Below, one piece after another: positions 15,731 through 57,100 of a stretch of DNA of 64,000 nucleotides. Every line of letters begins with the position of its first letter. Position 1 is the stretch's first letter. The DNA comes from Mansonella perstans (Eukaryota > Nematoda > Chromadorea > Rhabditida > Onchocercidae): assembly GCA_037074765.1 (NCBI GenBank), contig JBAMDO010000095.1:62001-126000 (forward strand), read 5' to 3'. The notes below the pieces were generated by a model. The model saw only the letters and a list, made by a program, of their open reading frames with translations, was not told the origin of the DNA and did not search any database. Both the position numbers and the translations under genes were made by a program.

Positions 15731-16318
15731 ATTGCAATTTTCCCTTCTCGCTAATATATTTTTTAAATAATTTCATAACGTCAAATTTAGAGGTTTGGAA
15801 AAATTGAAGTGAAATGAAATTTCGAAATTGTACAAAAAATGTTTTGCATAAATTATTTTTTAACAATGCAGTATAACAACAGTATAACAACTGAAATGAA
15901 ATATTCAGTATAAAGGATTAAAAATTGACAGACTATTGTTATATTATCACATATGAAAATGGATTATAAATACACAGGGTGTACCATTTCAATTTGGGTG
16001 TGCATTTATAGATAGAATCCTTAACAATTCCTAAATGATTCAGTGATCTCTGTTAAACTCTGTCTACTAATATCATTTAGTATGTTTTATTTCATTTATT
16101 TCTATAAAAAATGTCAGCTGTCGATTCATAAACGTACAACAGTCTTTTTCTAACAAAATTATTTATTAAACTCTTTGGTCATGCAATCTGTATAAAGTTT
16201 GCTTTGCAACGATTGGATCTATTCGATTAAGTGGGAGATGAAGATAATGTATTAGCAATGAATGTTCGACTGTTCTTTTTTTGTTGGAAGGAAATTTTCC
16301 ATTTTTCAGAATTGACTT
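15731..16318 (+). repeat. Dispersed repeat, copy A (inverted partner at 38735-39142)
   Basis: This segment matches the reverse complement of 38735-39142. Shared landmarks include TTGCAATTTTCC, GGTTTGGAAAAATTGA, GCATAAATTATTTTTTAACA, GTACCATTTCAATTTGGGT, and a CACTTAATCGAACAGATCCA-type block read on the opposite strand. Copy A has about 105 extra bases near 16033-16138. The shared block at 16170-16250 is open on the minus strand in A and on the plus strand in B, giving related peptides (YLHLPLNRIDPIVAKQTLYR in A). Homology continues to a CCATTTTTCAG acceptor-like site at 16300-16310, just before the zinc-finger frame. Confidence 0.75.
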
Positions 16319-16388
16319 TAACAGTGACAAAAAAACATATTGGACCTCTAGTTCACCAGTGTATGCAGTGAATGAGAAACAAATAAGA

Positions 16389-16868
16389 ATGATGGGTATG
16401 AACGAAATGAACTCAACAACCCAAGAAAAGAATGCTAAACAGAAAGGTACGAGGAAAATGGCGGGTAAGGTATGCCAAAAGAAAGTAACAAATATGTGCA
16501 AATATATGAAAACTCATACGAGCGAGAGGCCTTACCCTTGTCTTACATGCAACGAAAGTTTTTCGAATTCAAGCAGTCTGAAAATCCATGAGAAAATTCA
16601 TATCGGTTCGAAGCCCTATTCTTGTCGTACATGCAACAAAAGTTTTTCTCAGTCAAACAATTTGAAAATCCATGAGAGAATTCATATCGGTTTGAAGCCC
16701 TATTCTTGTTGTACATGCAACAAAAGTTTTTCTCGGTCAAACAATTTGAGACGCCATAAGAGAATTCACACCAGCGAGAGGCCTTACCTTTGTAAGACAT
16801 GCAATAATAATTTTTCTAGGCTAGACAATTTTAAAATCCATGAGAAAACTCATAACCGTATTTTTTGA
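16389..16868 (+). CDS. C2H2 zinc-finger protein, four fingers
   Basis: An uninterrupted frame, open from at least 16281, first ATG at 16389, gives 159 residues from that ATG. It contains four classical C-x2-C-x12-H-x3-H fingers in a row: [33 protein letters not shown] and [11 protein letters not shown] with their HEKIH, HERIH, HKRIH and HEKTH halves. Linkers are IGSKPY, IGLKPY and TSERPY, close to the canonical TGEKPY. A preceding [13 protein letters not shown] looks like the back half of an eroded fifth finger. Such proteins usually bind DNA in the nucleus. An acceptor-like TTTTTCAG at 16303-16310 means upstream exons may exist, but that stretch is part of a dispersed repeat. The gene is short and may be a fragment of a larger family member. 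Confidence 0.75.
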
Positions 16869-18237: not shown

Positions 18238-18882
18238 ATGAATTCAACAATGTCACTTTTCCACTACAATCCTCGTGATTATTTCTACACTTCACCGATG
18301 GAACGTTTTATGGTAAATCTTCTTGACAATGCATTGGACGACAGATCATATCGACCGCTGCAAAGTGTTGCACCATATTGGCTACATCAACCGGTGCTGA
18401 ATGAGTGTAATATCGGAAATGCGGTTGGCGAAGTAATTGTAACTTTCCGCTTACCATTTGCTATATTTTTAAGTTAAATACGTACATAATTTGAACTTAG
18501 TCAAACGCATGATAAATTTCAGATAGTGGATGAAAAAGATAAATTTGCAGTCAAAGTTGATGTCTCTCACTTTCATCCCAAAGAACTTTCGGTATCGGTT
18601 CGCGAACATGAACTGATTATTGAGGGTCATCACCAAGAGCGTACCGATCAGGCAGGACGTGGTAGTGTTGAACGTCACTTCGTTCGAAAATATATCATGC
18701 CAGAAGAAGTGCAACCTGATACCATCGAATCACATTTATCCGATAAAGGAGTGTTGACAATTTGCGCGGCCAAAAAAATTTTGGGATCATCTGCAACACG
18801 AAACATTCCTATTCGAGCATCCCCGAAAGAACCGGCAGCAGATGATAAATCAGCGTCAAATAACACAGAACAGTCGAAGTGA
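18238..18882 (+). CDS. Small heat-shock protein (HSP20/alpha-crystallin family)
   Basis: Two exons, 18238-18432 and 18523-18882, join in phase 0 to give 184 residues. The N-terminal part (PRDYFYTSPMERFMVNLLDN) and the crystallin domain resemble filarial small HSPs of the OV25 type. The alpha-crystallin domain runs from about residue 67 to 148: DKFAVKVDVSHFHPKEL, a loop HHQERTDQAGRGSVERHF, then YIMPEEVQPDTIESHLSDKG and GVLTI. The C-terminal tail has the I-x-I anchor (NIPIRA) used for oligomer assembly. These proteins are ATP-independent holdases in the cytosol that keep unfolding clients soluble. A second ATG at residue 5 could also start translation. The intron is 90 bp with a GTAATT donor and a TTTCAG acceptor. 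I see nothing bro­ken. Confidence 0.95.
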
Positions 18883-19152: not shown

Positions 19153-20844
19153 TTATTTGGTAGGAATTGGAATGCTTTCAATTTCGAATTTGCTAACTGT
19201 ACCTGCTTTGAATTCGACTCTTTTCCAATCAGACTTATTAACATTACAAGGTGCTATATATAACTTATTATCAACTCTATTAGCTATAATATCACTTCTT
19301 TGGAGTAATAATTTAGCTGCCAAGGTTGGGTTACTAGTAGATAACCATTCTATTAGAAGTAATAAGTTATTTCTATTTTCACAACTTCGTCGTTGCGTCT
19401 CAACTAATTGTTGCTTAAATTGTAAGTTTACAACATCAAAAATGTATTGGAGTTTAATATTCGCTGGGTCAAATTTACTTGACTTGTTTTTTTCTTCGTC
19501 GTTTAATTCCTTCATAATTAATTGGTCCTTGGAATCTAAGTTCATTGTATTTTTTGATCGCTATTGATCGACTCCTTCATCGATGATTATATCTCCATTC
19601 ATGAGATGAGGGTTAGAAAATTTACAAGTCGTGTCTTGTACCTTCTCATTTTTTTTTAAAAGAATGATGTTTGCAATTCATCTATAATAACATGCTTCTC
19701 GTATATCTGGGCATTATATTTCCCAATTCTTTTATAAAGACATTTACTTGTTACTTGGGTATTGTTCCATAGTATGATACTTGTTTCTAATACACATTTA
19801 CCACTTTATGTACTGCAGTGATTGGTATCATCAAGATCCGATAATAATCCCTTACCATCATAAAGGAGGAGTGATCCCTTTTCTAGTATGAAATTAGTGG
19901 TTGATTGACATCTTATTCCTAACCAACCGTATGAATATTGCATATTGTTGTTCGTTTCCATTTATTCTGTTTAATTCTTTTTAACGGTGATCCATTTAAT
20001 TCCTTCTGATTGTGCAAAATTATGCATAAATGGGAAGATATAGCAGAAATGATAGTTTCGTCTGAAACTGCTGACAAAGATAGTCTCAAAAAGGCCTTAG
20101 TACACACTGTCCGAGTAATATTACTACATTTGATTGCAGGTATCCGAACGTGAGTCCGAGTATAAACTGTGACTTGTGTCAATGTGACATTTTGATGAGT
20201 AATTTCATTACAATTCCATTTTTGTGGCATATTATTCTATTTTTGTGGCATATTAAAAGAAGTACCTGATATCCATTTACAATCTTGCTTAGAGTTTCTC
20301 TTAACTGCGGTTATGAGAATCAGTGGCATTAAATATAAACAATTCGTTATTGACTTAGAAATTGATCGGGTTTCATTTCGTATCCGTGTGGCCGCTCTGG
20401 TTCTCGTGCAATTGGTTTCTCCGGTTCTGAATTTTGAATTGGGGTTTCCGGAGTTGGTTGTTGAATAGTTTCGTTGTCTTCAACTTCTAGAGGATATAAC
20501 ATATTCACTAGCCTATTGAATAGCTTTCCATGTGGCATTTCTATCATAGCACTTCTTATTTCCCCATCTCGCCCTCTTTTGATTTCCTTTATTTTTGGTA
20601 ATTTCCACATTCCCCGGGGAATTTCAGGTTCGTTAACTAATACAATTTCTTGCTCCGAAGGTTCCCTTATATTAACTAATCTTGGGGAGATGTGATTTCT
20701 TTGAGTTCGTTCCTTTAAACTATTTAAGTATTCTCGTTTCCATAATTTCCAAAATTGATCTAACGCCTTATTTGTATGTGACCAATAAAAATCATGTAAA
20801 ATCATGTAACATATACTAGTACCATGCTCTCTCATTACATACAA
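19153..20844 (-). mobile_element. BEL/Pao retrotransposon 3' remnant (integrase C-terminus, env-like)
   Basis: On the minus strand, 20844-20347 encodes the region after the BEL/Pao integrase core, the DUF5641-type domain: FWKLWKREYLNSLKER, then GMWKLPKIKEI, GRDGEIRSAMI, and RLVNMLYPLEVED, ending with a proline- and glutamate-rich tail and a stop. Further 3', the frames at 20230-19919 and 19545-19153 are cysteine-containing and Leu/Gln-rich. They sit where nematode BEL elements carry an envelope-like glycoprotein; I call them env-like by position and weak resemblance only. Stops and frameshifts separate the pieces, and neither the RT nor LTRs are present here, so the copy is dead. It is a different part of the element from the fragments at 12059-13421. 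Confidence 0.75.
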
Positions 20845-21936
20845 TACATTCGAATTTGAGCAGGATTTTCTTTTTGTTTTAAAGCTATTATTTTCAATTA
20901 TTTCACTACTATTTTATCAATGTTTTATGGAAGTTGAGGAAAAGACTAAAAAACTTAACTAAAAGAAGGTAAAATTTTAGAATTCAAAAACTCTGTAAGT
21001 TTTATTTCAGATCAACTCTTTATGAGTATTCGGTTAAAGCGCTGCAAATTTCAGCATTTATATTAAAGCAAACAAAAGGATTACTATATTCGGAATAACA
21101 TATCGATTAAGTACCATTCTATAAAGTACAGCGCAGGCTTTTCAAAATTTTACCGCCAAAAAAAGTCATGTGACAGAAAACGATAGAATGCAGAAAAGTG
21201 AGAGTAAAGAAGGATTATGTGCAAAAAAGATAAAAGTTTGGAGAAGAGTACTGAGAAGTAGTTGGTGATTATCTTTTAGTTTGTCGCGTATTTGAACTTA
21301 TTGAACTATTGGGCGGCATAGATTTTCAAATGTTTTTGTCTTTTTTTCCTGAATTGTCACTTTTCATTATCCTGGAATTCGTTACTATTGATTATGGATG
21401 TGATATTTCACCTTAAAAGATACCTTGTTATTCTGAATATTAGGATAATAGAAAAGGATGGAATGGATTTCTTAAATGTTGCTTTAAAATTAACATTTGA
21501 AACGTGCAATTTGGTGAGTAAGAATACGAGAAATCCTTGTAGATGAAACTTGCTTAAAGTGATATTATGATGATATTTACAAAATATCAGTTCTTCTTTC
21601 AGATAAGATTGATCTAAAGTTACGAATTTTGAGTGGCGAGAAAAATTTTTGCTTTTTTGCGGTAAGTGATTGATCAACTGACTGATTGACTGATACTTTC
21701 TTATTTCACTTCCAATTAGCGCGGATTTATATTCTTGCGAAAAAACTTTTGATTTTTACAGGATGAAAGTAGCAGTGTAGCACTTGATTAAAGTTTTCTG
21801 AGAATTTGTCTGTTCATATTTTTGCAGCACATTTGTTTCTTATTTTAAAACGAGATAAAAGTAAATTTTATAGGTGAAAAAGGACAAAGATAACGATCTA
21901 GTTACTAATTTAGTGATTTCATTCAAAAAATTTATT
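20845..21936. other. Intergenic upstream of helicase-RBR gene
   Basis: No gene seen. Similarity to BEL/Pao stops near 20860. The rest should include the promoter of the next gene. Upstream exons cannot be excluded; for example there is an acceptor-like TTTTTACAG near 21752. Confidence 0.45.
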
Positions 21937-21961: not shown

Positions 21962-24900
21962 ATGGAAGAGCAAAAACGCAAGTGGGCTGCTGATATTGGG
22001 AACATGGATGAATTTGTGGAGCAGGTTGCGTAATTGAATACTTTTCGATCTTCTTTCAAATACTTCAATTTGACCTGATAAAAAATGTTGTGGTAGTTAA
22101 ACTTGTTTTTTTATTAATCTTATTTTTTCATTGGTCTTGTACGATTTTTTTTCCCATATTTCTTAGAAATAGTTTTATTTGTTACTTTTATTAGTCAAAG
22201 AATTAGTCAAAAAAAAAAGTGTTTTTTATTATTTAGTTTTATGTGTTGTGTTTTATTAATATTATATGTTATAATTTATCATTGTAAGAATGGAGTTTTG
22301 CTGTTGAATAACCTATACATATGCAGTCACTGCGTTTGGAAAACTCTTAGGAGATCTATGCCTAAAGTATTATTCCACAAAAGACATTGAGTAAAACAGA
22401 TTCTTAATACTTTACTTCAGGAAACATTGAGCAATGAAGTTTGGAATTTCCTTGTGAAAGCTGATTTGTTGCTGTGCAGTTTTTCTCAAAAGTAGTATAA
22501 GTGATATTCTGATATTCAATCTTTGATTTTATTGCATACAATGTTGCATTAGCGAGTTTGAATATTTATTTCAGATTACAAAATGTTCCGTTCCTCCAAT
22601 ACGTATAGAGCACAGAAATGAAGCTATGGAAGCCCAATCTTGTTTACCTGAAGAGAAAGGTTGGCTATATCTTGTACTTCAAATCTAAGTAAATGAATAT
22701 AAGTGTGCATTAAGGAATTCAAAAATAATTGTCCATTAACTTGGTTTTTTATCAACAGTTGTGAAGTTTAGATTTTTGATGTCATAAATGCGAACATTAA
22801 AAGGAAGATTTGGTTTGATTTTTTTGTCGGTTTCTAATTTTCTGTTTCTAATTTCTTGCATTGTAGTGTGCGGTAAACTTTCGGTATTGACGCATGACAT
22901 TTTTTCTACGAAATATTTGAATCTAATATTTGGCAATCAGGTTTTCACAACAAACAACGCTAGTAAGTATTTTTCTGGAAATGAAAAAAATCATTTGTTA
23001 GAATTTCTTCATTTTATGTTATTTATTGTAGCACCCATATAAATTGAAATAATTATATACGTATATTATATATTATATTATATATATATATATACCTTGT
23101 CATTTTCAACAGCGAAATATAGGAACAATTAGTAAAAAAAGAAAAATTCAAAGCTTGATATATATACACTGAATTCATATACGTGATGTATATATATATA
23201 TGATGTTAAGTAGCAAAGTAGATTCAATGTTTTTGCTGGTTTTTCATTTTGCAGGTTCTCGACTTTTTCTTTCAGGGGCAAATAATGAATTATGTGATAA
23301 AAACGATCACCATCAGAAATCGGTTCGTATTTTTAATTTTTCTCTGGTTACCAGGTACACGTGAGAGTTTGCTTATTTCATTGATTGCAGACTCCATATC
23401 ATGTTCACTCTCCACCGTGGCAAAACTTATTACGTCGTATTCGTGGTCGATTTGTTTGCGACACGGGAAGGCTGAAAAAAACTATTGAGGAACGAGAATT
23501 TAAAAACGTTGATGATTGTTATTTTTTGAAGGATGAAGTAATTTTCTTATAATTTGTTTTTTTCTAATGCTTCCATATTAATTTATCTTTTTCTATACTG
23601 AACTCCTATAAATTTCATGTGCCGTTTTGTGATTTTCATTTTTTTTTTCTTTGAGTTTGAAAAATCAGATGACTAATCAGAAGTATTCAGATCGTAAAAC
23701 GAGAATGCAGACTGGAAATTCTAGATGAGATAAACGCGAAACATATGGAAATGTTGCAAAAATTGCCGGATGCTGAAGGATTAATTACCGAGTTAGTAGT
23801 AGTAGATTATAGAATGAATCTTTTGCAGCTAATCGATTTTTTTTTTAAAGATCTGATGATTGATGGAAAGATTTTTTATAGATTTGAAATGCATTATTTA
23901 TAGGGCTTTACCCGTTATTCTCATGTTTATGTTGTTATTCTTCTGACAAAATTTGAATTACAGATGAAATTAGATTTTGTATTTATAAGGTTTATATTGA
24001 ATTGACGAAACTCTTTTGTAGTTTTCCTTACAATTTTTTTTTTTTTATTTGTAATTTTTGGATTTAATGGTTTAAAACAGTGCGCTAAATGAATATTAAT
24101 GGTTTAGGCTTATGAACCGCGAAATAGAACGTTTTGCATGCGGGTTGCCAGTGTATAATATCAGGAAAGAAATTAAAAATATTCTTTGCAATCAGGTTGT
24201 GTTTTTCTCTTTTCTTTTGTGATTTTATTTGATTTTTAATTTAAAAACTTTATTACTGCTGAGACTAATGTATGTTACTTGAATTTGGTCGTAAAAATTT
24301 TCTTTGGTTTTTTAAATTGAAAATACTGAGGATGTTGTTACTAGTCACCATGATTTTTTCTTTCATTTGTTTTAAATTGCAAATTTAGGCGAGAGTACTG
24401 CTTGTTGTAGCAGGTACTGGTTCAGGTAAAAGTACACAAATCCCGCAATATTTAGTACTCGATGGTATCATTGAATCCTCGAAGAAAGTTTTGTGCAGTC
24501 AACCGCGGAAGGTTTCTCTTTTAGCATTATTTGTTAGGGATTATGTAATGTAAATGAAATTGCAATAGAAGGAAATACAAATATTGTTTTAGGTTGCCGC
24601 GTGCGAACTGGCCATGAGAGTGGCGAAAGAGACATCGATGGGTAATTTCTGTTTGGTTAACGATCCCGTATATAAAGATGCGTAAGCTTTCACATTTTTT
24701 GGGATGAAATAATTGATTAAAGCTTTTGAGTAGTGTCTATAGTTCAGAGGTTCATGATATATGCTCTAAATACTTGCTATGTGTTTCAAAATTCGGACAT
24801 TTGTATTATGAATTATTTCTCTTTTGTTTTCATGCTTGTTATCTGCATTCAGTGTATTTTAGGAGGAAACATAATCTGAATGCAGCAATAAATTTTGTAA

Positions 24901-27900
24901 CAGAAAAGCACCTCTTGGACTGTATAAAAGAAGATCGTAAATTGTCGCGATTTGGATGCGTTATGATTGATGAAGTTCACGAAAGGACTGTGAATACAGA
25001 TATATGTTTAGGAATGATGAAAGCAATACTTAGATTGCGGCCGGATATGAAATTAGTCAGTTTTGTTGCAAAATTTGTTTTCAAACGAGTGATTAAAATT
25101 TTTAAACTATTCTATTTTTAAACCCTAATTTATTGAACGACCTTATTTTAGGTAATATCTTCCGCAACACTAGATTCAGAGATACTATTAAATTATTTCT
25201 CAGAGTTCCAAGTAAAGAAACTGGAAGTTCCAGGGCGTCAATATCCTATCAGAATTTGTTACGAGCCACCAATTCCTGAATGCAAGGGGTTCGTTAAAGA
25301 TTTTCCCCATAAATTACAAAATTTGATTTGTACTCTAAATTAAAAAAAAAAAGGAAATATACATTTCACAGGCAGGACATTGACATTTTTTCTATGTGTT
25401 TTTTCTTTACAATCAATGCATAATTTCTAAATTATCCTTACAAGCATTCCACAAGCAGGGCATGAACACTGGGTAAAGATGTAACTGTCTGGCTAACATC
25501 AGACATGTTAGATTAACATAGAAAGATTGACAGGTTTTACATTTTTCGGAATGAAATAATTGGTTGCAACTTTTGATTAATGTATATAGTCGAGAGGTTA
25601 ATATTGACATATGCTATTTAGAATGTGCTGTATTTTATATCAATATATATGTATAAACCAAAAGGAATATATATGCATATATATGTATACATATATATAT
25701 ATTCTGGAACAGAATAATATATATATATAATGTGGTAATTATATATATATACATTCTTCTGTTCCTTACGATATATTCTACTGTTCCTCAGTCACAAACA
25801 TAGCTAATCATTCATCTCATAGCAAGACTTTTTTTAGTAATTTGTTTCAAGATTTTACCATTTTGTTGGCCTGTTTTTGCGAATTATTGCTTTTGTTTCC
25901 AGAAGAAGCCTGATGCTGGATTATATTGATCGAACAGTGGAAAAAGTAATTAGTATTTGTGAGATTGAAGCTAAAAAACAACCCTTTGATGACATTTTTT
26001 GGGAAGACGGCTTGGAAACTCATGCAGCGCACATTATGGCTTTTTTATCAAAGTATGACAATTACTATTGGAGCAAATTATCAATATCGTTTGTTTAACT
26101 TTAAATACTTTGGATGATCATTATTTACTAGTTGGTATGTAAAAGCTGATAGTTGCAACTGAAATGTTTGACATATGCATTCGAAGCTATTTTATTTGAT
26201 TCGAAAGTAAAAATTTCAAGAAACAGATGTTTTGTGTTCGCATCGTGCCTAAAAACTCGTTCCAGTTTTTTCTTTTTTTTTGCATTTATTATATTTCTTT
26301 GTTTATTTTTACTGCAGTTCTTTCAGAAAATAATTTTTAGCCCTAATGAAACGCTGATAGCTGAAGAACTTCTGTCCAATCGACTAATAAAAATTAAACA
26401 TAGCGTGAATGTGAAAATCGTGGTATTATATGGTAATATGCCGGTTGAAGATCGAAATGAAGTTTTTGCTCCTTTGAAACCTGAATATCACCATAAGGTC
26501 GTTGAGTTTGCAAATTTCCTTGTTTCATTGTTATTGTTATCTTACAGGCGCATCGTTTTCATTTTTAAAATTTCGTTGCAGGTTATCTTTGCGACAAATA
26601 TTGGTGAAACTTCGATTACTATCCCAGGTGTTCGGTACGTTATAGATTGCGGCTTGGCAAAGGTATGTCCGTTCTTATTTCCTTCAAAAATTTAGATATT
26701 TGCAACTCAGAAAAGAAAAGGAGAAGGAAAACGATTGTTTCGGCTTCCAATATGCTTGTCCTTGGAAATGGTTACTTTTATCCAGGTGAAAAAATTTGAT
26801 GCTGCTAAAAGAAAAAATTTCGTAGAACTGGATTTTATATCGAAATCCGCAGCAAAACAACGAGCTGGAAGAGCAGGAAGAACAGCACCAGGTTTAAAAG
26901 ATTTTTCTAGTAAGAAATGATTCGGCGATACTGGCATTATCTCAAATAATCCAAACACTGAAGTCGAATTAAGAGTTGTGATATGTCCATCGTATGGTAA
27001 GCGTTTAAGGTGGGAAAAAAATGAAGCAAAAGAAAAGTAATTTGAAAATTAGCTTATTAATTGATGAAGTTCGACTAATTTGTGCAAGAGATGGAAGCGA
27101 CTGGTTTTATTCTACTTGGCTCATGGTGATAAAGATGTAATACTTAATTTTCTTATGAACACCTGCTGTATTGGTTAGGGCAATGATTGAATTTTGTTTA
27201 GGTATTTGTTATCGTCTTTACTCGGAAGAACAGTATGAGAAAATGGAATCTACAAATGTGCCAGACATTCTTCTTACCAACCTTACTGGAGTAATGTTGT
27301 ACATGATAGCAGCAGGTGTAAATCTTTCAGAGTTTGATTTCATTGAGAAACCAGATTCAAACGTCCTGATACATTCGGAGGCACTTTTGAGGTAATTCTT
27401 TTTTAAAGAATGCTTTTGTAAGCTTTCGTTCCCAGTTTTGAAGAAATGCATTGTTTAATGAAATATTGCAGATCACTCAAAGCCATTGAGTTTCGCGAAT
27501 CTACGCTAGTTCTAACCCAATTAGGTAAAGAGATGCAACAGTTACCCGTGGAACCATGTTTAGCAAAAATGATTCTGGATTCAGTGCAGTACGATTTAGT
27601 GGCTGAAGTAGCGGTTGTCTGCGCATGCGTTCATGTTGGATCACTTTTCAATCGCAGAAATAAGCAAAATGTAATACTTTGAGGTATTCAAGTAGAAAAT
27701 GACTTTATCATCTGTCATTTTCACTTTTGATTTTTTAAATTACCTTGCAACTATAATATTTTAATTTATATTAATATCGTTTGTGCTTGTAGTATGAATC
27801 GGGATGAGAAAAACAGAGAAAGTAGGTGATAGATTTATCCTTATATGCTTGTATGCTCGCTACAGAAAAATTCAACGTGTCTTTCCTATTCTTTCATTTC

Positions 27901-30900
27901 CTTTTCAATTATTATTGCTTCATTAGTATTAAAATTAATATTAAAAAAAATTAGTATTAAAGTGTAGCGTGACATTTAATTCTTAACTTTTCTCCTGTTT
28001 ATGTTAGTGGAGCGTTTAATTCATATCTTGAAAGCATTGTCACTTATTGACTCTGACACTGACAAAAAGTAATAATTTCTGCGTATTACTGAGATTTTGT
28101 CAGGCAGCGGTGGAATCTTACATTTTTAGTGTGTGAGATATATGCATTTTATTGTGAGATGAATTATCAAATTTTTCATTTCAGAAATTCATTTTAGTAG
28201 ACCAAAAAATACTATCATTTTGTGAAGAAAGTGGTGATCCAATGACATTTTTAATGGTAAGTTTAGTTTTTTATGTGAAGTAGTGGATTAGTTTAACGAA
28301 CTTTAAAAAAGATCTAGATTTTATTGAGTTGCTATAATCTCTTTTTGTTGAGTTCACTTTCATTAATTTTCCTTTTTTACTGCATTAGTACTACTAGTAT
28401 TTACCCGCTACTATTCAGGAAAAGACATAAGAAAACTGTTTATTGCAGTATGTTGACATACTAACAGCTTTATTAGCTTGTTGCAGTCAGTGTTGTGAAT
28501 GGCGGTTCGTTTTATTTTAAATGTAAGTTATTCTTTAGGTATTCCTGCAGTATATAAGAACACCAAAACATCGATCCAGGCATTGGTGTTTTGAGAATTA
28601 TGTAAATTTGAAGCGCATGAAATCTGTGTTTTATATTGCGGACAAGATCTGCAAAATTATGTCTCATCTTACGGTGAGTATGCATTCACATCTTTTATTC
28701 TGTTTTTTTTTTTTTTTTTTTTATTCTGCGAATTATCATTAACTTTGATTTTATTGATTGGTGCTTTATTTTTTTTTTTTTTTTTTGTATCTGTATATTT
28801 TTACGCAGTATTTTTATCAGATTAGTTAATTTAGGGTGTTAATGCGGACATTAACAACATTGATATTTCAAAATCACGGACAATTATTCCTAATCTTTAC
28901 TGTCGATCTTTTGAAAGCAATCTGGCAATATATTCTGGCCTACCAGAACGTGGATATTATGATTTTAATGAGAAAAAATACGTCTTTGTATGTTGCTAGA
29001 TATATTTCAGAAATGATCAAAGTCCAAACAAGTTTGGAATTAACAGTAGGAATTGTAGAAGTCATGAATCTCTATCACTTCTGACCATATGGAATTCTTT
29101 TGAATATTGTTCTATTTTAAGTCTGTATTATGAAATGAACGTCTAAAAACAATCTCAAGACGGTGGACGTGTTCCTTTAGCTTATGATAAGTAGCTCTAA
29201 TCTTGCAGATTCATCCGTCATCAGCTCTAAAATACAGCGATGAAACTCCGGAATTTCTTGTTTATGAATGTTCGATCCGTACATCAAATGATTTTGTATT
29301 GAATGTGTGCGCTGCGGATCCTTCTTGGTTGCAGGAAACTGATCATAATATGTTGGAAGAAGAAAGAAAGGTATGCTTACTGTTATTTTCATCGAATACA
29401 CAAATTTCTATCATGTGAACACAAAAAGCTAGAAAAAAAAAAGAACAAGTATTTTTAAATTATTTTTGGTTTATTCTTTTTCTATTTTTTTTTCTGATTA
29501 AAAAGTAAATGATATCAAAAATCTTTTATTGCTTCAGTAGCTCCTGTAAATTGCATTGATCAAACTTGTAAGTATTTCATAGTACCATATTTCATATTAT
29601 CTTAGGCTACGGGGCGAATTTTTGTAATGCAGTTTCATTGTCGAATATTTGAAATTTATTGCAGAACAGGTTAGTGCCATATAATGTTAGATGTGGAACT
29701 GCTACGAAGAGATGGATTTTGGCACATATGAATATTCTTCAACAGGAGGTATATCATGTATTTAAATGTTTTGCTTCAATAAAGTTCAAGGAGCTTTACA
29801 TGCATTTCCATCTTTCATCTGAAATGGAAGTTGATAGATAAAATATTTTTTTTGCTTATTTATTGTTAAAGGGAGCACAAAAGATACTCGTGTTTGGGTT
29901 TTAGGATTAGAATGGAGTTGGAATTAGGGGTTGATTTAATCATTAATAGAAGTCTTCGCGTTGTATAAATTTTGTTCAGGTTGGAATGGAATGCATTGCA
30001 AAGAAGAGATCTGATGATCCATACCACAGACTTCAGATTTATGTTTCAGTTAAAAATCTTCCGAAGGTATGAAATTTTTTTTCGGTAGATGAAATATTTT
30101 TATTCGATGACTATGGTGCAAACGTCCCGTTGTAATCTGGGAAATAATACTTGGAAGTATAAGTTTTTGTTCTGAGAAATCGGAATGTGGACATTTATTG
30201 ATCTATCAGGATGTTTTTGATTGTGCCTGTATTTTTTAGTTGAAGACATTTGTTGAACGGATTACAGAAGAAAAAGCGGATTTACTACGCAGAAAAACGA
30301 GGGAAGTGCCAATAATGCATGCAGATTATGTAGTCAGTGTTACTTTTTTTGCTCATAGCTGTTGAAATTGACCTTAAGAAGAAACATCGTCACTACATAT
30401 GATCATGGTTGACAGGGAATTTTCTGAATTTTTCTTTTGCCACAATTTTGCATTTCGTGACACTTTCAACTGTAAGTAAAAAATAAATTGCACAAATTCT
30501 CAATTCTAGTTGCACATGTCTGGTAGCGGTACACCACTGGAGATTCTAATCCCCGGTGAATTCTGCAGTATGTATGTTGGAAGAAGCGGAATTAATTGGA
30601 AAGATGATGCTGCATATAGAATTAAGCTAGAAGACTACTTCAGCAAGGTTTATTTTTCAATTAATTGGACAGAGTTTGCTTTATTCTTAACTGCAATAGA
30701 TAATATGACTTAAATAAAACATGTTGATTTATTAAAAAAATTTGGTCAGGAAGAATGCTGCCTTAATGAGCACTGATTCTGGGATAATATTTTAATGGTT
30801 TGGAGAAGATATGTAGATATGCGTTCTCTGTATTCATTTTGATAGCTGCGATGTTCGTTTTTTATACTTATTATTTGCCTATAATAAAATTCATTTTGCA

Positions 30901-33900
30901 GTTTGGAAAAATCACAGAATTCGTAACATTTGGTGAAGAATATCAGAAGCAAATTGGACATTCGTGCTTAATTAGGATGGAAAACAAAGAAGTTGCAAAA
31001 CGTGCATTTATATATAACAATGAAAATCATTGCAATTTCAATATTGAAGTTTGTTTCTACTTGCTCACTTTTCAGACTTTTGTAATTTCAGTATTATTTT
31101 GTTGTTATTCGATAAGATCATTGTTCATGAACTGTTACCAAGCCCCCTTAATATGCTGCGACGCATTTTCACTAGTTAATTGAAATTTGTATTTCAGCCT
31201 CGTCTTGGAAGAAAATATCTAAGCCGAGTAAATAGATATCATCCATCTGCTTATCGATTACTGATTAGATGGTGGCGTAGACCCAGCTATGGTTATGGTG
31301 TAGTAAAGGTTACTTGCTTATTAATGCTGTTGTCCCTAGCTGCAGCCATAATTTAATAAATAATTTAAGTAGCTTATCAATTTCGGCTCGAATCCACTAT
31401 ATTTATTTCCGGTATTTGAAATGAAGGCAATATTTTGGCATCCCTCTTGAATCCTTTTCCTTTAAGTTGATTGGAAAAAATAATTAAAGTGTAATTGTAC
31501 CAAGTAGATTTAAAGTAATAGCTGATGGAACTTACTACTCTTTGCACTTTTTTCAGTTGAAATCTCGTAATTTCACTCAAAGGTTGTACGCTTTCAGCGT
31601 GATTGCAGAACGTTTCGGGCATTTTCAACCTTCATTATTGCCGGAAGATTTGATGGTATCTTTGTCTTTTCTATTTTCTTCATGCATTGATCGTTTATCC
31701 AATAATTACTATTTTTATAGGCAAGAGATCCGGATATAAGTGTCGATGATTTGTTCAAGGTATGTTTTTAATTAAAGAATATTTGTAATTTTATTGTTTC
31801 TGTTGCATGAAAGCAGTATTCTTTGGAATGCTGTTTTATATGATTGCTGAAATTGTTTAATAAAATTATAAAATTACAATATAAAATTTTAGGTGAAACT
31901 GCACTCTCTTCCGCTGGATGTTGACAGTGAACGGTTGCTTGATGATTTGGTGCCGGTGCTAAATGCATATGGTATAGAATTCGATGAAATATATGTGGTT
32001 CGAAAAAAGAAGTATCCTGTTGAAGACAAGAAGTATGCTTCATTCAACTACTACAGTTATGCAATTTCGTTAGTGTTTTCTTAAGATTTTTCGAGGGTAG
32101 AGTTTTTTTCAGAGATTTGGAGGAGCATTCCGGGCGAATTTCTGACTATATCAGAAAGGTGGCGAAGAATTCAGGTATCGCTGTGACGTTTTTTTTGAAT
32201 AGACTGAAATCTGACGTTTTATTGTTTTTTGTAATGCATGCTAATTTTTCGTGAGCATTCGTAATTGAATAATTATCGCTGGAATAGTAATTATTAATTT
32301 CCAGTGGGCAGTAATGGTTGTCCATTCGAGGTTAAGGTGCGCGTGCCAAGACATAGCGGCGAAATTGAATTTATAGCAATGGTTCTCTTCCGTGATATGA
32401 ACATCGGAATAAATGTGGGTAAGGCATTGAAAGAAGCAGCGGAAAATGGCACAACTTTGCAAATGGGGCCAGTAAATTATATGCATGATGTTCGCTTTCT
32501 CAATTTTTTTCTGTATCTTTTTTTCACAAATATTCTGCGGTTCAGTTATTTTAGTCGCTAAAACCTCAGTGCAGTAATTTGCATGTTTTTAAGGTATGAA
32601 TTCGTCAAAAATAATCTTCGAGTAGGGAATGTCACAGCTTTATAAGATAATCACGCATTTTAGAATTTTTGGTCAACAGTATTTGTGTTAAACTGAATAT
32701 GTTGACGGATTCACCATTCAATTGTTTCAGGCCGATGTGAAGCAGATGTTTCATTACCAGATGAAAATTCCGCTAATTCTCTTCAACATGATTTTCTATG
32801 ATTTAAAAGCTATTTATGATATAATCGATCACGAGCTTATTGATTTTAATTATCACAGCGATACTAATCGCAAATTATACTATGTTTTCGTTTCTGGGGA
32901 AAATTTCAAGCAAGTTCCTATTTTTTCTGATGTTGTGACGGCGTTTATCTGAGATAAATGTTTACTTGTGCAAAATTGCGCTGCATGCGAAAATTTATTT
33001 ATTTCAGTTCTGTAAACGAAGTTAAAGCTGTCATTGATACAGTAATCAACGGATATACGATTAAATGTAGAGATGGAGAGGAAATTGACGGCACTGAATT
33101 ACCGTGTCATCGACTGCTTACAAAGTAACTACCATATATTTGTCTTCACTGAACTAAAAAGTAATGTTGACGTAGTTTACCGAAATCAGAGTGCTATCCT
33201 TTACATTAGTACAAGAAACATTTTACATCAGTACAAGTTTTGAATAACATGCATTTTGATATGAACTGTTAAGAAAGCAGTGATATTCTGATTAGTCCGT
33301 AATCGAAAATTTTGAGATTTCGTTCACTATAATCTTTTAGAATTGGTCGGTATTTTATGCACGATTTATCCCAAAGATATGCTGTTCTTATGAACACATC
33401 GCCTTATAAGATGGAAGTGAAGATCCAAGGAAGTGTTTCGAATGTTGAAAAAGCTAAAATAGAAATCAAGCGTTTCTTACAAGAATGGTAATCAATTTTT
33501 AACTTATTGTGCTTTTTCTTGCTTCGACTAAATATCTTTTATGATCCTGCAACAGAGTAGTATTACAGAAGTTAAAATTGGAATACTGGTCTCTGGAAAT
33601 GATTGTTCATGTGGGATTTCGTGTAAATGATTACCAACTGTTATAGTTCTCCAAATCGTATTTGATAACTTGTTCCTTGCTGATTTTGATTATATAGGTT
33701 GGATGCAGACATTAATCAGATTTTGATTCTTCAACCACCGACTTATCAACCAGGAACACTGAAAGCTCTTTTCGCTCAAAACAATTATGATCTTTATCTG
33801 CTGGAGAAGCAGCTGGGGCGTGGCCTACATTTAGATGCTAACATTACCAGACGTGAACTACAATTTATTGGCAAAGAAGTCCAATTTCAAGAGCTTTTAG

Positions 33901-36900
33901 TTAGTTTGAAAAATTCATATCCTCACAAAAGAAACTTTTTATACAGTGAGCAGAATTGTTTGAATCTAGAAGTTTGAAATGCTGATATATTCATTTTCGT
34001 GAAACTGTCAAATTTGAGAGTAAATTTATTTTTGATTTTGTGTTTTTGATCTCTTCTACGAAGATCCAATTTACTTGCTGGTATTCAACCTCCTGTTCGA
34101 AGAAAAAGCTCATCATGTGAAAATGTGATAATCTATTATAATACAAAATGTTGATTACACTGAATTTTTCTTATTTTAAATAGTTTCGCATGTCGGTAAT
34201 TGGCCTATTGTCGTTATGTCATTTCAGAAGATATTGCGTTCCATTTCCGACAGCATTCAGTCGAGAAATTCATCGGAAACTACTTTCAATGAAATCGGCG
34301 TACCACAATGTGTTGTTTGCCTTTGTGCTGCAGATTTGGAAAATTATTGTCTGGAGACGTGTGGGCATTATGCTTGCAGGTCATGTTTAAATATTCAGGT
34401 AAATTACTTTTGCAATATTTTGAAGTTAATTCTTCGTAATACACCCCTTGATTTTTGGAATATGTTTTCTCGGTCTTAACTGTGAAAAATAACAGTAGAG
34501 TATTGTTATTTAGTATTTTGAATATTTCGTCGTGTTGTCGTATCTTACAATAACGATTATTGTTACTTTCATCAAGCGTGATAATTATTATCATTAGGAG
34601 TAGTATTTTGAATCTTTGTTTATTATCATTGCACAGGGTTTCCTGTGAAAGATTGCTGCATTTCGTTTACTGTGTTTTTATATGCTCAAATATTTCAGTT
34701 GAAAACATCAATTGAAACGCGTAACTTTCCGATTGTTTGCGTTGCTTGTGAGGAACCATTCACATGGTTAGATTTGGAAGTTCTTATGCTTGGAGACTTA
34801 GTTCGCAATAAGGATGAAGACCCTCAGAAATTGCAGTCATTATCAGACGCTTCTCTAGCTTGTTTCATTGAACGTCACGGTGATCTCTACAAGCAATGTC
34901 TGACGCCTGATTGTCGAGGATTGCACTCTGTTAGCTATCAATACTTTTGTTAGCTATTAATACATACTTTTGGTGACAAACTGTTAGCTATTAACATAGT
35001 TTTGGTGACATACTAAATTTTTTAAATTATTTTAACATTTATTCCCATTAATTTTTGATACAAATGTATAAGGTCACAATCGATGCTCGTTTGAGTCCGT
35101 GTAGATTGTGTGCTCGTATACAATGCACTAAATGCGGAAATGAGGAACACGAGTCAATGGCATGTGAGGAATACGCAAGACTAAGAGTTAATGCAGATGA
35201 ATCAGTGACGAAATGGATACGGTAAGTTCCATTTGCTTTGTTCACTCTGATTTTGTGGATTTCATGGATAACACTTATCAGTTTAGAGTGGAAATATGAC
35301 TTCGGGATATTAAGCATGTTTTAACATGTTTCGTTAAACATGGTTGGAGATGAGTATTAAAAATGAAATTATGAAGTATTACTGTCAAGTATGGCAAAGA
35401 AACTTGGCTGGAAATGGTACACTAACAGAACGGGAAAAAGTAGTAGCATTTGCAACAACTTGATGAACGGTGATTAAATAAAATCTCGCAGCTAACGTTA
35501 CGACGAGCTTCTTTTTAGAGACCAATGCTTAATCTTTCCCATTGCACAGCTTTTGGGTTATCGCCTGACTCTTCTAGTACTGTGATGGCTTGCAGTAGAA
35601 ATCTTGTGATATAATCGTTCTATATGCATTTATGTGAGACATTTATTGCCCATGCTTAGTATTACGAGATCCGAAATAATTCATAACATAGAAATTATCA
35701 AGATAACTAAAGTGTTTTGGAAATGTCTTCGACCAAGTGAAGTAAATTTACAAAAATAGAAAAATGGAGGTGTAAAAAAGGCAGTATTATTCTTATTTGA
35801 ATAGTTATTTATGCATAGAAAGGTCAGTCGGTATACTGTTGTGAGTATGAGATATTGTAAATAATTTTTAGTGTAAGTTATTATGAATGTCAGTTCGTTA
35901 GCAAATTATACAGATGTTAAATATAATATGCGAGGTCGTCGACACGTTGTAAATGATTCTTAAAGATGTAACATCCTGTTAATCACCTTTGATTAACTTA
36001 AATGTTTGAGGTTGTTGTGAGACCGTTGAATTGTGTTAAGCAAACTTCCACTATGTAAGTGGTTCGAACAAGATTCAACTTAATTAGATTCAATTCAACC
36101 AAATTGGTTGTTCGGTCCGTCTCAGTACAATCCTTCAATAACCAAGGATGTTAACCTTTTGTGTTCTCTGTTAACTGTATTGTCCGCTGTCCACCAGTAA
36201 AATTGCATTGCAAATCATTCGTTAATGTAAACAAAAAAAATGACTTCATCTCAAGTTTAACTTTGAAAACTTTCATAACGCAGTGCTCAGAACGATTCCT
36301 ATAGCCAATGATATATCAATTCAGAGACGATCAGAGAAGACGAGGAAAATGTCCAAATATAAATTGCCAAGCCGTTATTGAAAAGTTGGGGGGATGCAAT
36401 CACATGCAGTGTTCGCGTTGCAAACAACACTTTTGCTGGATTTGCATGTTTTCTGTGAGTTGCCGCATGCTTATATGCGTTTATTGTTCGAAAATACATT
36501 TGTTCTTTATTTGGTTCTCTCTATATATTCCAAATATTATAGGCTAAAAAAGATCGTGAGATTTATGCTCATATGGATTTGGAGCACGGTGGATCAGGAG
36601 CTGATATATATGAATTGGCAGAAATGGAAAATGATCCGTTTATTCATGAATTTATTGAGAGACAAGAAATGGAGCTGTTGGTAAAATTTCTTCAAGAACT
36701 AATTCTGTGTAGCATTATTTTTTGAGGGGATTCATCTTGACCAAAATGTATCTTTATGTCTCTTATTTCCAAATATTCATTAGATAACTTTGACGGAAAT
36801 AATTAATGACTGGTTGCATACGCCCAACGAATTAAGATCAGCTGTGATTCTTATTCTTTCAGTTGGGTCCACAATTCAACGCGGGCGAGGAAGCGGAATT

Positions 36901-36949
36901 TTGGGTAGTGCCTGATGAAAATGCTGATGATGAGGCGCAAGCATGGTAG
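21962..36949 (+). CDS. DExH-box RNA helicase fused to an RBR (RING-IBR-RING) E3 ubiquitin ligase
   Basis: One frame through 42 exons gives about 1763 residues and all phases agree. Exons begin at 21962, 22575, 23276, 23391, 23691, 24108, 24389, 24593, 24863, 25152, 25903, 26341, 26582, 26786, 27202, 27472, 28185, 28539, 28835, 29209, 29665, 29980, 30240, 30510, 30902, 31198, 31557, 31721, 31893, 32113, 32305, 32731, 33008, 33341, 33698, 34064, 34228, 34699, 35073, 36325, 36543 and 36863. The stop is TAG at 36947. Residues about 150-690 form an SF2 helicase core with winged-helix/ratchet-like C-terminal parts. About 1100-1460 has no motif I can name. About 1490-1690 is an RBR ligase with the catalytic cysteine. 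The overall order matches plant DEAH11/DEAH12-type proteins. Likely it couples RNA binding or unwinding to ubiquitin transfer, but substrates are unknown. Exon 32 appears to end at a GC donor; exons 29 and 36 have ambiguous donors. The first exon could be internal. Confidence 0.9.
23035..23215. repeat. AT microsatellites in the helicase-RBR intron 2
   Basis: Two TATATA tracts, about 23043-23096 and 23157-23204, lie within the intron between the exons ending 22659 and starting 23276. Confidence 0.8.
24108..27670 (+). other. Helicase core domain of the fusion gene
   Basis: The motifs appear in order. Motif I is AGTGSGKST, with Lys at about residue 191 (exon at 24389). Motif II is DEVH at about 284-287 (exon at 24863). 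Motif III is SSATLD at about 315 (exon at 25152). Motif V lies in [20 protein letters not shown] (exon at 26582), and motif VI is [12 protein letters not shown] at about 512 (exon at 26786). The next exons ([37 protein letters not shown]) continue into the helicase-associated HA2-like region. All residues needed for NTP binding and hydrolysis look present. Motif II reads DEVH where the DEAH family name expects Ala. Confidence 0.92.
25620..25780. repeat. AT/GT-type microsatellite and short inverted repeats
   Basis: ATATAT-rich sequence with GCATATATATGTATACATAT-type palindromes lies in the intron between the exons ending 25288 and starting 25903. A TTCTGGAACAGAATA motif interrupts it. Confidence 0.8.
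34228..36454 (+). other. RBR ubiquitin-ligase module of the fusion gene
   Basis: RING1 begins at about residue 1490 ([12 protein letters not shown], then [15 protein letters not shown], then [12 protein letters not shown]). The IBR follows ([14 protein letters not shown], then [19 protein letters not shown] and MACEEY). RING2 is in the exon 36325-36454: [20 protein letters not shown] then [15 protein letters not shown]. By comparison with parkin and other RBRs, the cysteine in GGCNHM (about residue 1670) is the acceptor that forms the thioester with ubiquitin. The first RING2 pair has spacing C-x4-C, where C-x2-C is commonest. A 1.1-kb intron (35222-36324) splits IBR from RING2. Confidence 0.92.
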
Positions 36950-37086
36950 ACGGTGACGGAATTCAAAATTTTTTTGAATTAGAGCAAGGATTGAATGGAT
37001 TTATTACTGAAGAAATGCATAAGCCAGATGTTGGCTTCGAAGTTCATAACGATTTTGAAGCGAAAGTGGATGAGGATGCAGTGTGA
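36943..37086 (+). other. Overlapping 47-codon frame at the helicase-RBR stop
   Basis: An ATG overlaps the last sense codons of the fusion gene and opens a different frame for 47 codons. It is rich in Asp, Glu and Phe ([15 protein letters not shown] to DEDAV). The annotated C-terminus is also acidic (NADDEAQAW). This may be the true C-terminus displaced by a small frameshift, or chance. No splice solution that joins the two was found. Confidence 0.35.
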
Positions 37087-54100: not shown

Positions 54101-57100
54101 ACGAATTACCCATTGAATTGACAACACGCGTGTTGCAAAATATTGTTCAATTGAGCTCCCTTCGACGAACTTTGTTTTCAAATCCAGAACGACAGACATA
54201 TTTGACGCACATTGTCAAAGGTGTTAAAGGAATCATGGAACAGCCAGATAAACTTCGACAACAGGTATTGTTGAGAAATGTTGCATACTTTAATCGTAAT
54301 TGCATTCGATCATTGTTAATGACCATGTATTTAGTCCTGTATGGGCAATGTATTTTTAACATTTTAATTTTGTTATTATTGAGTCATCAAACTATCTTTG
54401 TTAATATCCAAGATCTCACATGAATAAATCTTTTGATTAGTCTTCGGTTATTTTTATAGTCTTTGGTTATTTTTTTTAGTTTTTGGTTATATATATTTTC
54501 AGGAAAGTTTCCACGAATTTTGCCGCATTGTATCGCGCTTGAAAGGTAATTATCAGTTGATTGAGCTGATGAAAGTTGAGGAATATCCTACAGTTATCGC
54601 GCTTTTGGCGGATTTCACTGAGCAAAGTTTGCGGGTAAGTTTTGATATCCTGTATTTATGCTCCCCGATACACTTTTATTTTGATTCACTGATTACGTGG
54701 CAGTAACTTTTATAAATTTTCGGAAATTTCCACCTGCGGTAATTTAAAGCTGTGTACCGGAGAATGTACTTTGTGTCCTGTCAGAAAATCAAGCAATTCG
54801 GAATAATTTCACTATCTCGATCGAAAGTTCAGTGTGTTCAGTAAGCTTCTATAAGCTTCAAAAAAAATTTTCATTTCAGGCTTATGAATTCTCAGCAAAT
54901 AGTACCTACTACTTATTATCGTTTTGGCAACGTATGGTTTCATCGGTACCGTATGTGAAAGCTGCGGATCCACACCTGCTCAATTTGTACTGTCCTAAAA
55001 TTACTGCTACTTACGTGGAAAGTCGTTTGCAATATGCGCGAGCTGTGGCAAGGTTCATTTATCTGTTTTTTCATTAGCCTAGTGTAAACTTATTTAATGC
55101 GCGTTTTGATTAGCACTGCATAACGGCATTGAATAAGGTGCCCTTCTTTGATTAAACTCTTTTTTTAAAAAAGGATTAGGATCGGTGAATAGTGGGGAAG
55201 AGAAAGCAGGTGGTTTTCAAATTGAAGAAGAACATGGCTTAGTTCAAAAAATAGAAGTGTTTTTGCAATAGCTATGACTTTCAAGAGAGAAACTGAAGCT
55301 GGTTGTATAAATAGTTCAGTTTTATTGCTTTTTGATTCCATTGCTTCATGTGTTTTTTTATCAAGAAAATTTTTGATAGGGTTTCTGACACTTAAGTTTT
55401 CAATAAATCTCGTTTTTAATTCCAAAAGATCTTGTTCTAAGTCATCTATTATTGTTGTATCATTTTTAGATGTATAAGATGTATAAACTTCTCTATATTT
55501 TTGAATATTTACAGGGGTGATATAGGTGACGATCCTTTAGATGACCAAGGTGCTATACAGCAAGTTATGGAACAAATTGCTATCATTTGTCGTTGTGAAT
55601 ATGAAAAATCAGCAGAATTAATTATACGCTTATTTGATCATGACTATACAATATACGAGCGTTCAGCCAGTAATCCGCCGGTATGATTTATGTAAAATTC
55701 AATTTCGAAACTATTATGAAATTAGTAAGTTTATGAAATTTTACTGAATTTTCAAATTTAGCTAAAACTTAAATTAAAATCAGCAAATTTAACTTCGATT
55801 ATGTTTATATGTTTGACGGTATGCTCTGGATATCTTTTTCAAATAAAAGGTAAAGCGTTCAGCGAGAGCATCGCTATGGAAAATAAGATGCTTTTAATTT
55901 TAGTCAGCTGAAGCACGTGAGTCAGTAGCTTGTTTGACGTGGTTAGTAATGATAATTGGAGCATCAATTCAAGGTCGAGCATCATACAGTAACTGCGAAG
56001 AGCATGACGTCGTTGATGGAAATCTGATTTGCAGGCTAGTCCTTTGCGTCCGTTTTTTTAGCTGTTGATTTTTTTGGATATGCACTGTTCACTATAAATT
56101 AGCAATGATTCTTTACTTGGGCAGAAATTCGGAAGTTGCGAAAAACTATTGGAGTTTCTTCCTTACAGAGCGGACAAAAAACAAATAACTGACTTCTTCT
56201 GTGTTGACGTTATGTTTTTCTGATCTTCACTCTGCAGATCTTCTTTGTTTCAGTGCTTTAGAAATTAATTTAAACAAAACCTTCGTAAGGGTGAAATTTC
56301 GGGTAACTTTCATTTCTTACAAAATTTTCTTTAGGGTATTGAAACTTATGGAATTATCGGATTCACGACTTTCAGCTGGCATGCCAGGGAATTTTAAGCT
56401 TGAGGTGGCTTATTTGTATATGTTAGATCAATTTCGAAAGATTTATGTTAGTGATCAGATCCAGAAAATTAGTAAAGTGTACGATCAACTCGAGAAGAAT
56501 CTCGGTTTACAAGATGAAACTGCTGTAATTACTATATATGCTCGTAAAATGTAAGTTTTTTATGTATTAAAATTGTTGATTAGAGAAAAGCTTAAAACGG
56601 AAGTCATTATTTGAAGTTAATTGTTTTGCGAAACTTCCATGCAGTTTTTTGTAGTGCCTTTATCGCCATTAATGCTACCTCATTTGACAAAACCCTGTGC
56701 TTTCCTCCTTCCCTCCCTCCATGCTATGAAAGAAACTCATTCGAACCATTCAATTGATTTTCTGTTTTTTCCCATGTTTTAAATGCTCGATATCATCTTA
56801 TTCATTTCAGTATATATATTATTATTTTATTTCATCTAAGTATGTAATTAAATGTTAAGCAACATTCCATACTAATGAATAAGCAATAAAATTGCAATTA
56901 TTGCAGTATCACGAATCTGAAATATTGGGGAGCAGAGGAGAAGCTTGTAGACGACAGTTTAGTGCTGCTTAACGAACTTTCACTCGGTTTTTCAGCTGGT
57001 CGTCGCTTGATGCGATTACCTGACATACAATTACTGTTAAATAATCATTCGGTTTGTGTTATTTTCTGCTTTGATTGACTTTTTAATAAGTTTGATAAAG

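What the first reader, a model, noticed from the sequence alone, without database searches (positions are those of the whole stretch)
21962..36949. Helicase and RBR ubiquitin ligase encoded as one nematode gene
The sequence shows 42 phase-consistent exons linking motifs I-VI of a DExH helicase to a full RING1-IBR-RING2 with the catalytic GGCNHM cysteine. From established knowledge, this order is known mainly from plant DEAH11/DEAH12 and some invertebrate predicted proteins. The well-studied animal RBRs (parkin, ARIH, HOIP) lack a helicase. An enzyme that could tie RNA engagement directly to ubiquitin transfer is poorly characterised, and its presence in a parasitic nematode is notable. The function is inference.
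Basis: partly seen in the sequence, partly recalled or inferred. Interest (0 to 1): 0.8.

Follow-up and report, generated by a model that had tools for sequence, protein, structure and literature searches.

The report
Nematode helicase–ubiquitin-ligase fusion gene
A filarial worm gene really does encode one large protein that joins an RNA helicase to an RBR ubiquitin ligase, but it belongs to an old family already annotated in other worms, molluscs, starfish, plants and amoebae, so the gene itself is ordinary, although I could not find its role described.

Summary
Guided by orthologues, I find 42 exons from 21962 to 36949 encoding 1776 aa in one open frame: a complete DExH core, HA2 and OB folds, an RNA-binding middle, and RING1-IBR-RING2 with the catalytic cysteine at C1683. 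It is very probably one gene: nine other spirurid species and Toxocara have proteins with both halves. The one model cut near the middle, in Loa, reads through the place of a GC-AG intron. The architecture is not new. It is the Helicase (Plant I, DEAH11/DEAH12) subfamily of RBR ligases, described as ancient and repeatedly lost in animals (PMC2904391 passages). Of 65 relatives, 65 keep the helicase lysine and 63 the RING2 cysteine.

New here: the same genome holds decayed partial copies of the gene on five contigs, and the gene's conserved acidic tail lies in another frame around and beyond the called stop.

Most likely it is an RNA-engaging ubiquitin ligase: the helicase half handles RNA or RNP, and the RBR half passes ubiquitin through C1683. 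The coupling is inferred; I found no functional study in the held library.

The parts
21962..36949 (+). Whole gene, 42 exons, 1776 aa up to the called stop
24108..25288 (+). Exons 7-11: helicase RecA1 (motif I with K230, motif II DEVH at 323-326, motif III SAT)
   Evidence: Pfam DEAD 209-361
25903..27391 (+). Exons 12-16: helicase RecA2, motif [10 protein letters not shown] at 551-558
   Evidence: Pfam Helicase_C 462-559
27472..29370 (+). Exons 17-21: HA2 ratchet and OB fold
30240..32032 (+). Exons 24-30: RNA-binding region matching RBD_DEAH11 (943-1047) and RRM_DEAH11 (1075-1168) of the liverwort relative P0040
   Evidence: mapping; profile comparison; controls; RRM_1 below its cut-off
32731..34398 (+). 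Exons 33-37: three KH-type segments (1272-1333, 1335-1409, 1416-1484) by mapping from the liverwort relative P0040
   Evidence: KH_DEAH11 scores below Pfam's cut-off here (13.4 against 27)
32910..33007 (+). GC-AG intron; the Loa gene model P0010 reads through the equivalent place and ends soon after
34228..34929 (+). Exons 37-38: RING1 (C1503 to C1549)
34699..35221 (+). Exons 38-39: IBR (C1599 to C1640)
36325..36680 (+). Exons 40-41: RING2 (C1668 to H1717)
36395..36397 (+). Codon of catalytic Cys1683 in GGCNHM
   Evidence: C in 63 of 65 relatives, gap in 2
36943..37080 (+). Conserved acidic C-terminal tail, in a frame other than that of exon 42

Best explanation
The gene is the filarial orthologue of the Helicase (Plant I, DEAH11/DEAH12) RBR ubiquitin ligases (the confidence below is for this identity). 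Shown from sequence: a DExH core nearest to DHX8/Prp22 among solved structures, with the catalytic residues that I checked intact; HA2 and OB folds; an RBD/RRM and KH array homologous to that of DEAH11-type proteins; and an RBR with the zinc ligands and RING2 cysteine that I checked. Inferred: the helicase and KH/RRM half binds and moves along RNA or an RNP; RING1 recruits a charged E2; ubiquitin passes to Cys1683 and then to a lysine on a protein held on that RNA, or on the enzyme itself. Since no Ariadne domain follows RING2 here, any off-switch probably lies in the helicase/KH half, so that RNA or ATP state gates ligase activity (weakest step). Likely setting: RNA or translation quality control, or RNA defence (inference).
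For: One frame over 42 exons. Full-length orthologues with both halves. A search with the RBR part of Thelazia P0011, limited to proteins about as long as P0011, returned 11 proteins (the query included), all with helicase and IBR domains. Motif I lysine and motif II Asp in 65 of 65 relatives, RING2 Cys in 63 of 65, each RING1/IBR ligand in 55-65 of 65. Middle region: filarial against non-nematode profiles E 7e-14, 3.8e-10 and 1e-14, with 12 off-target and 4 reversed controls no better than 0.0076. Helicase-RBRs are separated from DHX8 by a branch with support 100. Constraint: where gene and decayed copies differ, orthologues side with the gene at 101 sites and with the copy at 40, 89 uninformative. 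The RBR thioester mechanism is general (PMC3305615 passages).
Against: No transcript, biochemistry or structure. KH_DEAH11 and RRM_1 are below Pfam's cut-offs in this protein. No paper that I opened shows ligase or helicase activity for a member (searches). The acidic tail is out of frame here. The gene's own coding changes are not few (40 against 101), so constraint is moderate.
Confidence: 0.9

Rival explanations
1. Two adjacent genes, a DHX8-like helicase and an Ariadne-like RBR, wrongly joined.
For: The Loa model P0010 (1209 aa, named DHX8) ends before the RBR. Sequence search of solved structures puts the two halves nearest to DHX8 and ARIH1 separately.
Against: The 12 other filarial, Thelazia and Toxocara proteins (P0001-P0009, P0011-P0013) carry helicase and IBR domains together. 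The Loa model reads through the place of the GC-AG intron. A search with the C-terminal 691 aa, limited by length and to the 7991 candidates sharing most words, found no free-standing RBR protein, only P0010.
Confidence: 0.03
2. The window copy is itself a decaying gene: its tail is out of frame, and the genome holds several degenerate fragments of it.
For: Displaced tail; decayed fragments on five contigs.
Against: All other exons are open, and the catalytic and zinc residues that I checked are intact. Orthologues side with it 101 to 40 against the fragments.
Confidence: 0.08
3. The helicase or the ligase is a scaffold only, so the protein works as one enzyme, not two.
For: Some relatives depart at motif II (E replaced in 3 of 65, H in 2 of 65).
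Against: The window protein and nearly all of the 65 relatives keep both active sites.
Confidence: 0.12

Closest known systems
Filarial orthologues (Dirofilaria 'DEAH12', Brugia Bm6894, Onchocerca, Litomosoides, others)
   Same: Same length class and domain order; 68-78% identity over aligned residues (the 78 is the partial Loa protein), 62-74% in the listing
   Different: This copy's tail is out of frame and it lacks the longer N-terminus of some models
Helicase / Plant I RBR subfamily (DEAH11/DEAH12 of plants, mollusc, starfish, Trichoplax and Naegleria relatives)
   Same: DExH, OB, RBD/RRM, KH array and RBR in one chain; separated from DHX8 on helicase columns
   Different: About 24-35% identity over the aligned parts; KH_DEAH11 and RRM_1 profiles fall below cut-off in this protein
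DHX8/Prp22 helicases
   Same: Nearest solved helicase core
   Different: No RBR; the 5 DHX8 rows sit outside the helicase-RBR group
Ariadne RBRs (ARIH1/ARIH2)
   Same: Nearest solved RBR, GGCNHM motif
   Different: No helicase. RING2 here ends in a His-His pair (H1712, H1717; His in 61 and 56 of 65 relatives), where parkin's second zinc site is given C446, C449, C457 and H461 (PMC3305615 passages)

Membership tests
Helicase (Plant I) RBR subfamily | SF2 DExH core with motifs I, II, III and VI | tested here: met
Helicase (Plant I) RBR subfamily | Complete RING1-IBR-RING2 with catalytic Cys, C-terminal to the helicase in the same reading frame | tested here: met
Helicase (Plant I) RBR subfamily | DEAH11-type RBD/RRM and KH array between the two | tested here: met
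   Profile-profile E 7e-14, 3.8e-10 and 1e-14 with controls; the single-sequence Pfam KH_DEAH11 score is below cut-off
Helicase (Plant I) RBR subfamily | Groups with helicase-RBRs, not with DHX8 | tested here: met
   quick method, SH-aLRT only, 33 rows chosen by name, helicase columns only; order among phyla unresolved
Helicase (Plant I) RBR subfamily | One mRNA across both halves | not testable with these tools
   No RNA data; indirect support
Helicase (Plant I) RBR subfamily | Ubiquitin ligase and RNA helicase activity | not testable with these tools
   Active-site residues only
Ariadne RBR | Ariadne domain after RING2 | tested here: not met
   No such Pfam match at E up to 1; 59 aa follow H1717 in the model

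The most novel reading that the evidence does not exclude
The protein is an RNA-gated ubiquitin ligase whose own helicase and KH half is the off-switch: with no Ariadne domain or parkin-type tail (recalled) to cover RING2, RNA binding and ATP turnover expose Cys1683, so that proteins are ubiquitinated only where they sit on a particular RNA. A further, much less likely twist: the inverted-repeat helicase fragment on contig C142, whose stretch shares 18 sense and 14 antisense 22-mers with the coding sequence, could make double-stranded RNA that tunes this gene.
Probability: 0.25. Interest if true: 0.7.

Novelty: new member of a known kind. Interest (0 to 1): 0.27.

Why it matters
It supports that the fusion in filariae is real and conserved, and that a split annotation (Loa) probably stems from a GC-AG intron. 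The family spans animals, plants and Heterolobosea. I found no functional study of a member, and none of the molecule names shown for solved structures (60 of 75, 30 of 30) is of this family. It is a candidate in which RNA engagement and ubiquitin transfer lie in one chain. Human relevance looks limited, as the well-studied human RBRs lack the helicase (recalled).

Tried and rejected
A self-training exon finder diverged into about 100 mini-exons and was dropped; exons were then set by hand and corrected by orthologues. Two places of the first hand model were wrong: a spurious exon at 28449 and an exon end at 32471. A strict pattern for the RING2 cysteine found 24 of 65; it was the pattern that failed, and the alignment gave 63 of 65. 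A horizontal origin from plants was considered: nematodes form one clade (support 100), but the order of phyla is unresolved and long branches meet, so it is neither supported nor excluded. Rfam gave no match at gathering thresholds in the window. No structure was predicted: the full-length relatives exceed the 1200 aa limit, and neither the spliced window protein nor cut pieces clearly met that tool's stated condition, so none was sent. On checking, I corrected my own note, which says that both C170 and C22 have the tail in one frame: that holds for C170 only.

Full report
Observation. The window holds a plus-strand gene from 21962 to 36949. My first hand model had 43 exons and 1775 aa; orthologous proteins corrected two places, giving 42 exons and 1776 aa with one terminal stop. 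Forty introns are GT-AG and one is GC-AG. Joining the same exons with random trims of 0-2 bases gave 0 open frames in 2000.

Domains. Pfam finds DEAD, Helicase_C, HA2_C, OB_NTP_bind, IBR and IBR_1 above their cut-offs; HA2_N, IBR_2, RRM_1 and KH_DEAH11 are below them. The liverwort relative P0040 carries RBD_DEAH11, RRM_DEAH11 and three KH families, which map by alignment to 943-1047, 1075-1168, 1272-1333, 1335-1409 and 1416-1484 of the window protein. Profiles of 9 nematode proteins (window included) and 14 non-nematode proteins, picked by me from the 65 relatives, match segment by segment at E 7e-14 (RBD/RRM), 3.8e-10 (middle), 1e-14 (KH) and 3.1e-58 (RBR); the 12 off-target pairs and 4 reversed controls gave 0.0076 or worse. 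A first run with one option more and no controls gave 1.3e-15, 2.7e-12, 1.1e-15 and 4.7e-68. The segments were cut at columns of a joint alignment, which favours matching pairs somewhat.

Relatives. Of 960 proteins at E up to 0.001 among the 7991 candidates scored, 120 were listed. By their precomputed domains, 64 of these 120 carry both a helicase and an IBR-type domain; the other 56 show no IBR-type domain and are mostly DHX8-like. With Trichoplax P0121 that makes 65. In the alignment of these 65, the motif I lysine, motif II aspartate and the motif VI Gln and two Arg are kept in 65; motif II Glu in 62 and His in 63; RING1 and IBR zinc ligands in 55 to 65 each (the low one is a Cys/His exchange); the RING2 catalytic cysteine in 63, with gaps in Setaria P0007 and P0056. 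The last RING2 pair is His in 61 and 56 of 65.

One gene or two. The Loa model P0010 does end there, but it reads through the place of the GC-AG intron. A search with the C-terminal 691 aa, limited to proteins of 0.55-1.75 times that length and to the 7991 candidates sharing most words, returned only P0010. A search with the RBR region of Thelazia P0011, limited to proteins of 0.55-1.75 times P0011's length, returned 11 proteins out of 977 candidates, the query included, all with both domains. Neither search alone covers all lengths. No RNA evidence was available.

Evolution. On helicase columns of 33 rows chosen by name (28 helicase-RBRs, 5 DHX8), helicase-RBRs separate from DHX8 with support 100, and the 11 nematode rows form one clade with support 100. 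Relations among phyla are open, long branches (Toxocara, Adineta, Trichoplax, Stegodyphus) and odd letter make-up (Willaertia, Toxocara) are flagged, and the quick method gives SH-aLRT only. Marin (PMC2904391, passages) describes the Helicase or Plant I subfamily as one of three found in unikonts and bikonts, often lost in animals; I did not see his 2009 animal paper. A C. elegans paper (PMC6288150, passages) says that the worm has 11 predicted RBRs and names homologues among them; no helicase type is named and the word helicase does not occur, but its list is not given as complete. Searches of the held open-licence library led me to no functional study of a member. DEAH12 appears as a marker gene in a clam paper (PMC8765752, passages); one more paper with DEAH12 (PMC6770048), one with DEAH11 (PMC12849586) and a soybean RBR survey (PMC3904995) I saw only in the listings.

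Decayed copies. Searching the window's own genome with three pieces and reading 13 stretches shows partial copies on C22, C170, C12, C142 and C84. They align through introns at about 77-91% identity. In 8 blocks compared (two C142 blocks overlap in the window; C84 was not included), exon divergence is near intron divergence in 7, there is no steady third-position excess, and each block has exon indels that are not multiples of three; stops were counted in 6 of 7 blocks. In one C142 block the exons differ more than the introns (0.23 against 0.08), with a 41-base gap there. They are most simply unprocessed pseudogene pieces. Among amino-acid differences, orthologues agree with the window gene 101 times, with a fragment 40 times, and 89 are uninformative; some sites count more than once because C22 and C170 overlap. 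Flanks tested at three of the five places occur elsewhere in the genome, nearly whole for C142 and C170 and in pieces for C12, so these lie in duplicated DNA.

Tail and start. The tail of orthologues lies at 36943-37080 in another frame. The C170 copy has it in one frame with the preceding codons; the C22 copy has its own break a few codons earlier. At the displaced spot the window differs from both by a length that is not a multiple of three. Error or mutation cannot be told apart. Upstream, a DUF5641 match lies at 20347-20844 on the minus strand (that DUF5641 marks BEL/Pao elements is recalled), and only a weak match (E 0.003) to the extra N-terminus of one orthologue remains at 21456-21533.

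Mechanism. Shown: intact active-site residues on both halves and a conserved middle homologous to RNA-binding domains. From established knowledge: RBR ligases form an obligate thioester on a RING2 cysteine (PMC3305615, passages). Inferred: that RNA engagement places or gates the ligase, and that substrates are RNP proteins. My odds: identity 0.9 or better, two working enzymes about 0.85, RNA gating about 0.25.

Verdict. Real, correctly read in the main, and a new member of a known family whose role I could not find described.

Noticed in passing
G000 contigs C22:323081-327284, C170:102172-104952, C12:376110-377460, C142:133154-138723, C84:73941-74107: Decayed, intron-bearing partial copies of this gene scattered in the same genome, most with frameshifts and stops.
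   Followed up: yes
G000 C142:129850-142376: Large inverted repeat (3.6 kb outer arms at 97%, inner arms at 95%) running to the contig end and holding helicase fragments on both strands; real palindrome or assembly fold-back.
   Followed up: partly
window 36943-37080: Conserved acidic tail in another frame than the called last exon.
   Followed up: partly
window 32910-33007: GC-AG intron; orthologue gene models handle the equivalent place differently (residues kept, skipped, or read through), a likely source of split annotation.
   Followed up: yes
window 20347-20844, minus strand: DUF5641 match, probably part of a BEL/Pao retroelement (recalled), about 1.1 kb upstream of the gene start.
   Followed up: no
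window 18526-18882 and 16281-16868, plus strand: HSP20 small heat-shock protein reading frame and a C2H2 zinc-finger array.
   Followed up: no
window 56201-56554, plus strand: Exportin-7-like TPR match.
   Followed up: no
G000 C521:603988-604140, C123:76710-77550, C78:83483-83605: Other IBR-domain exons in this genome, over Pfam's cut-off, probably further RBR genes.
   Followed up: no
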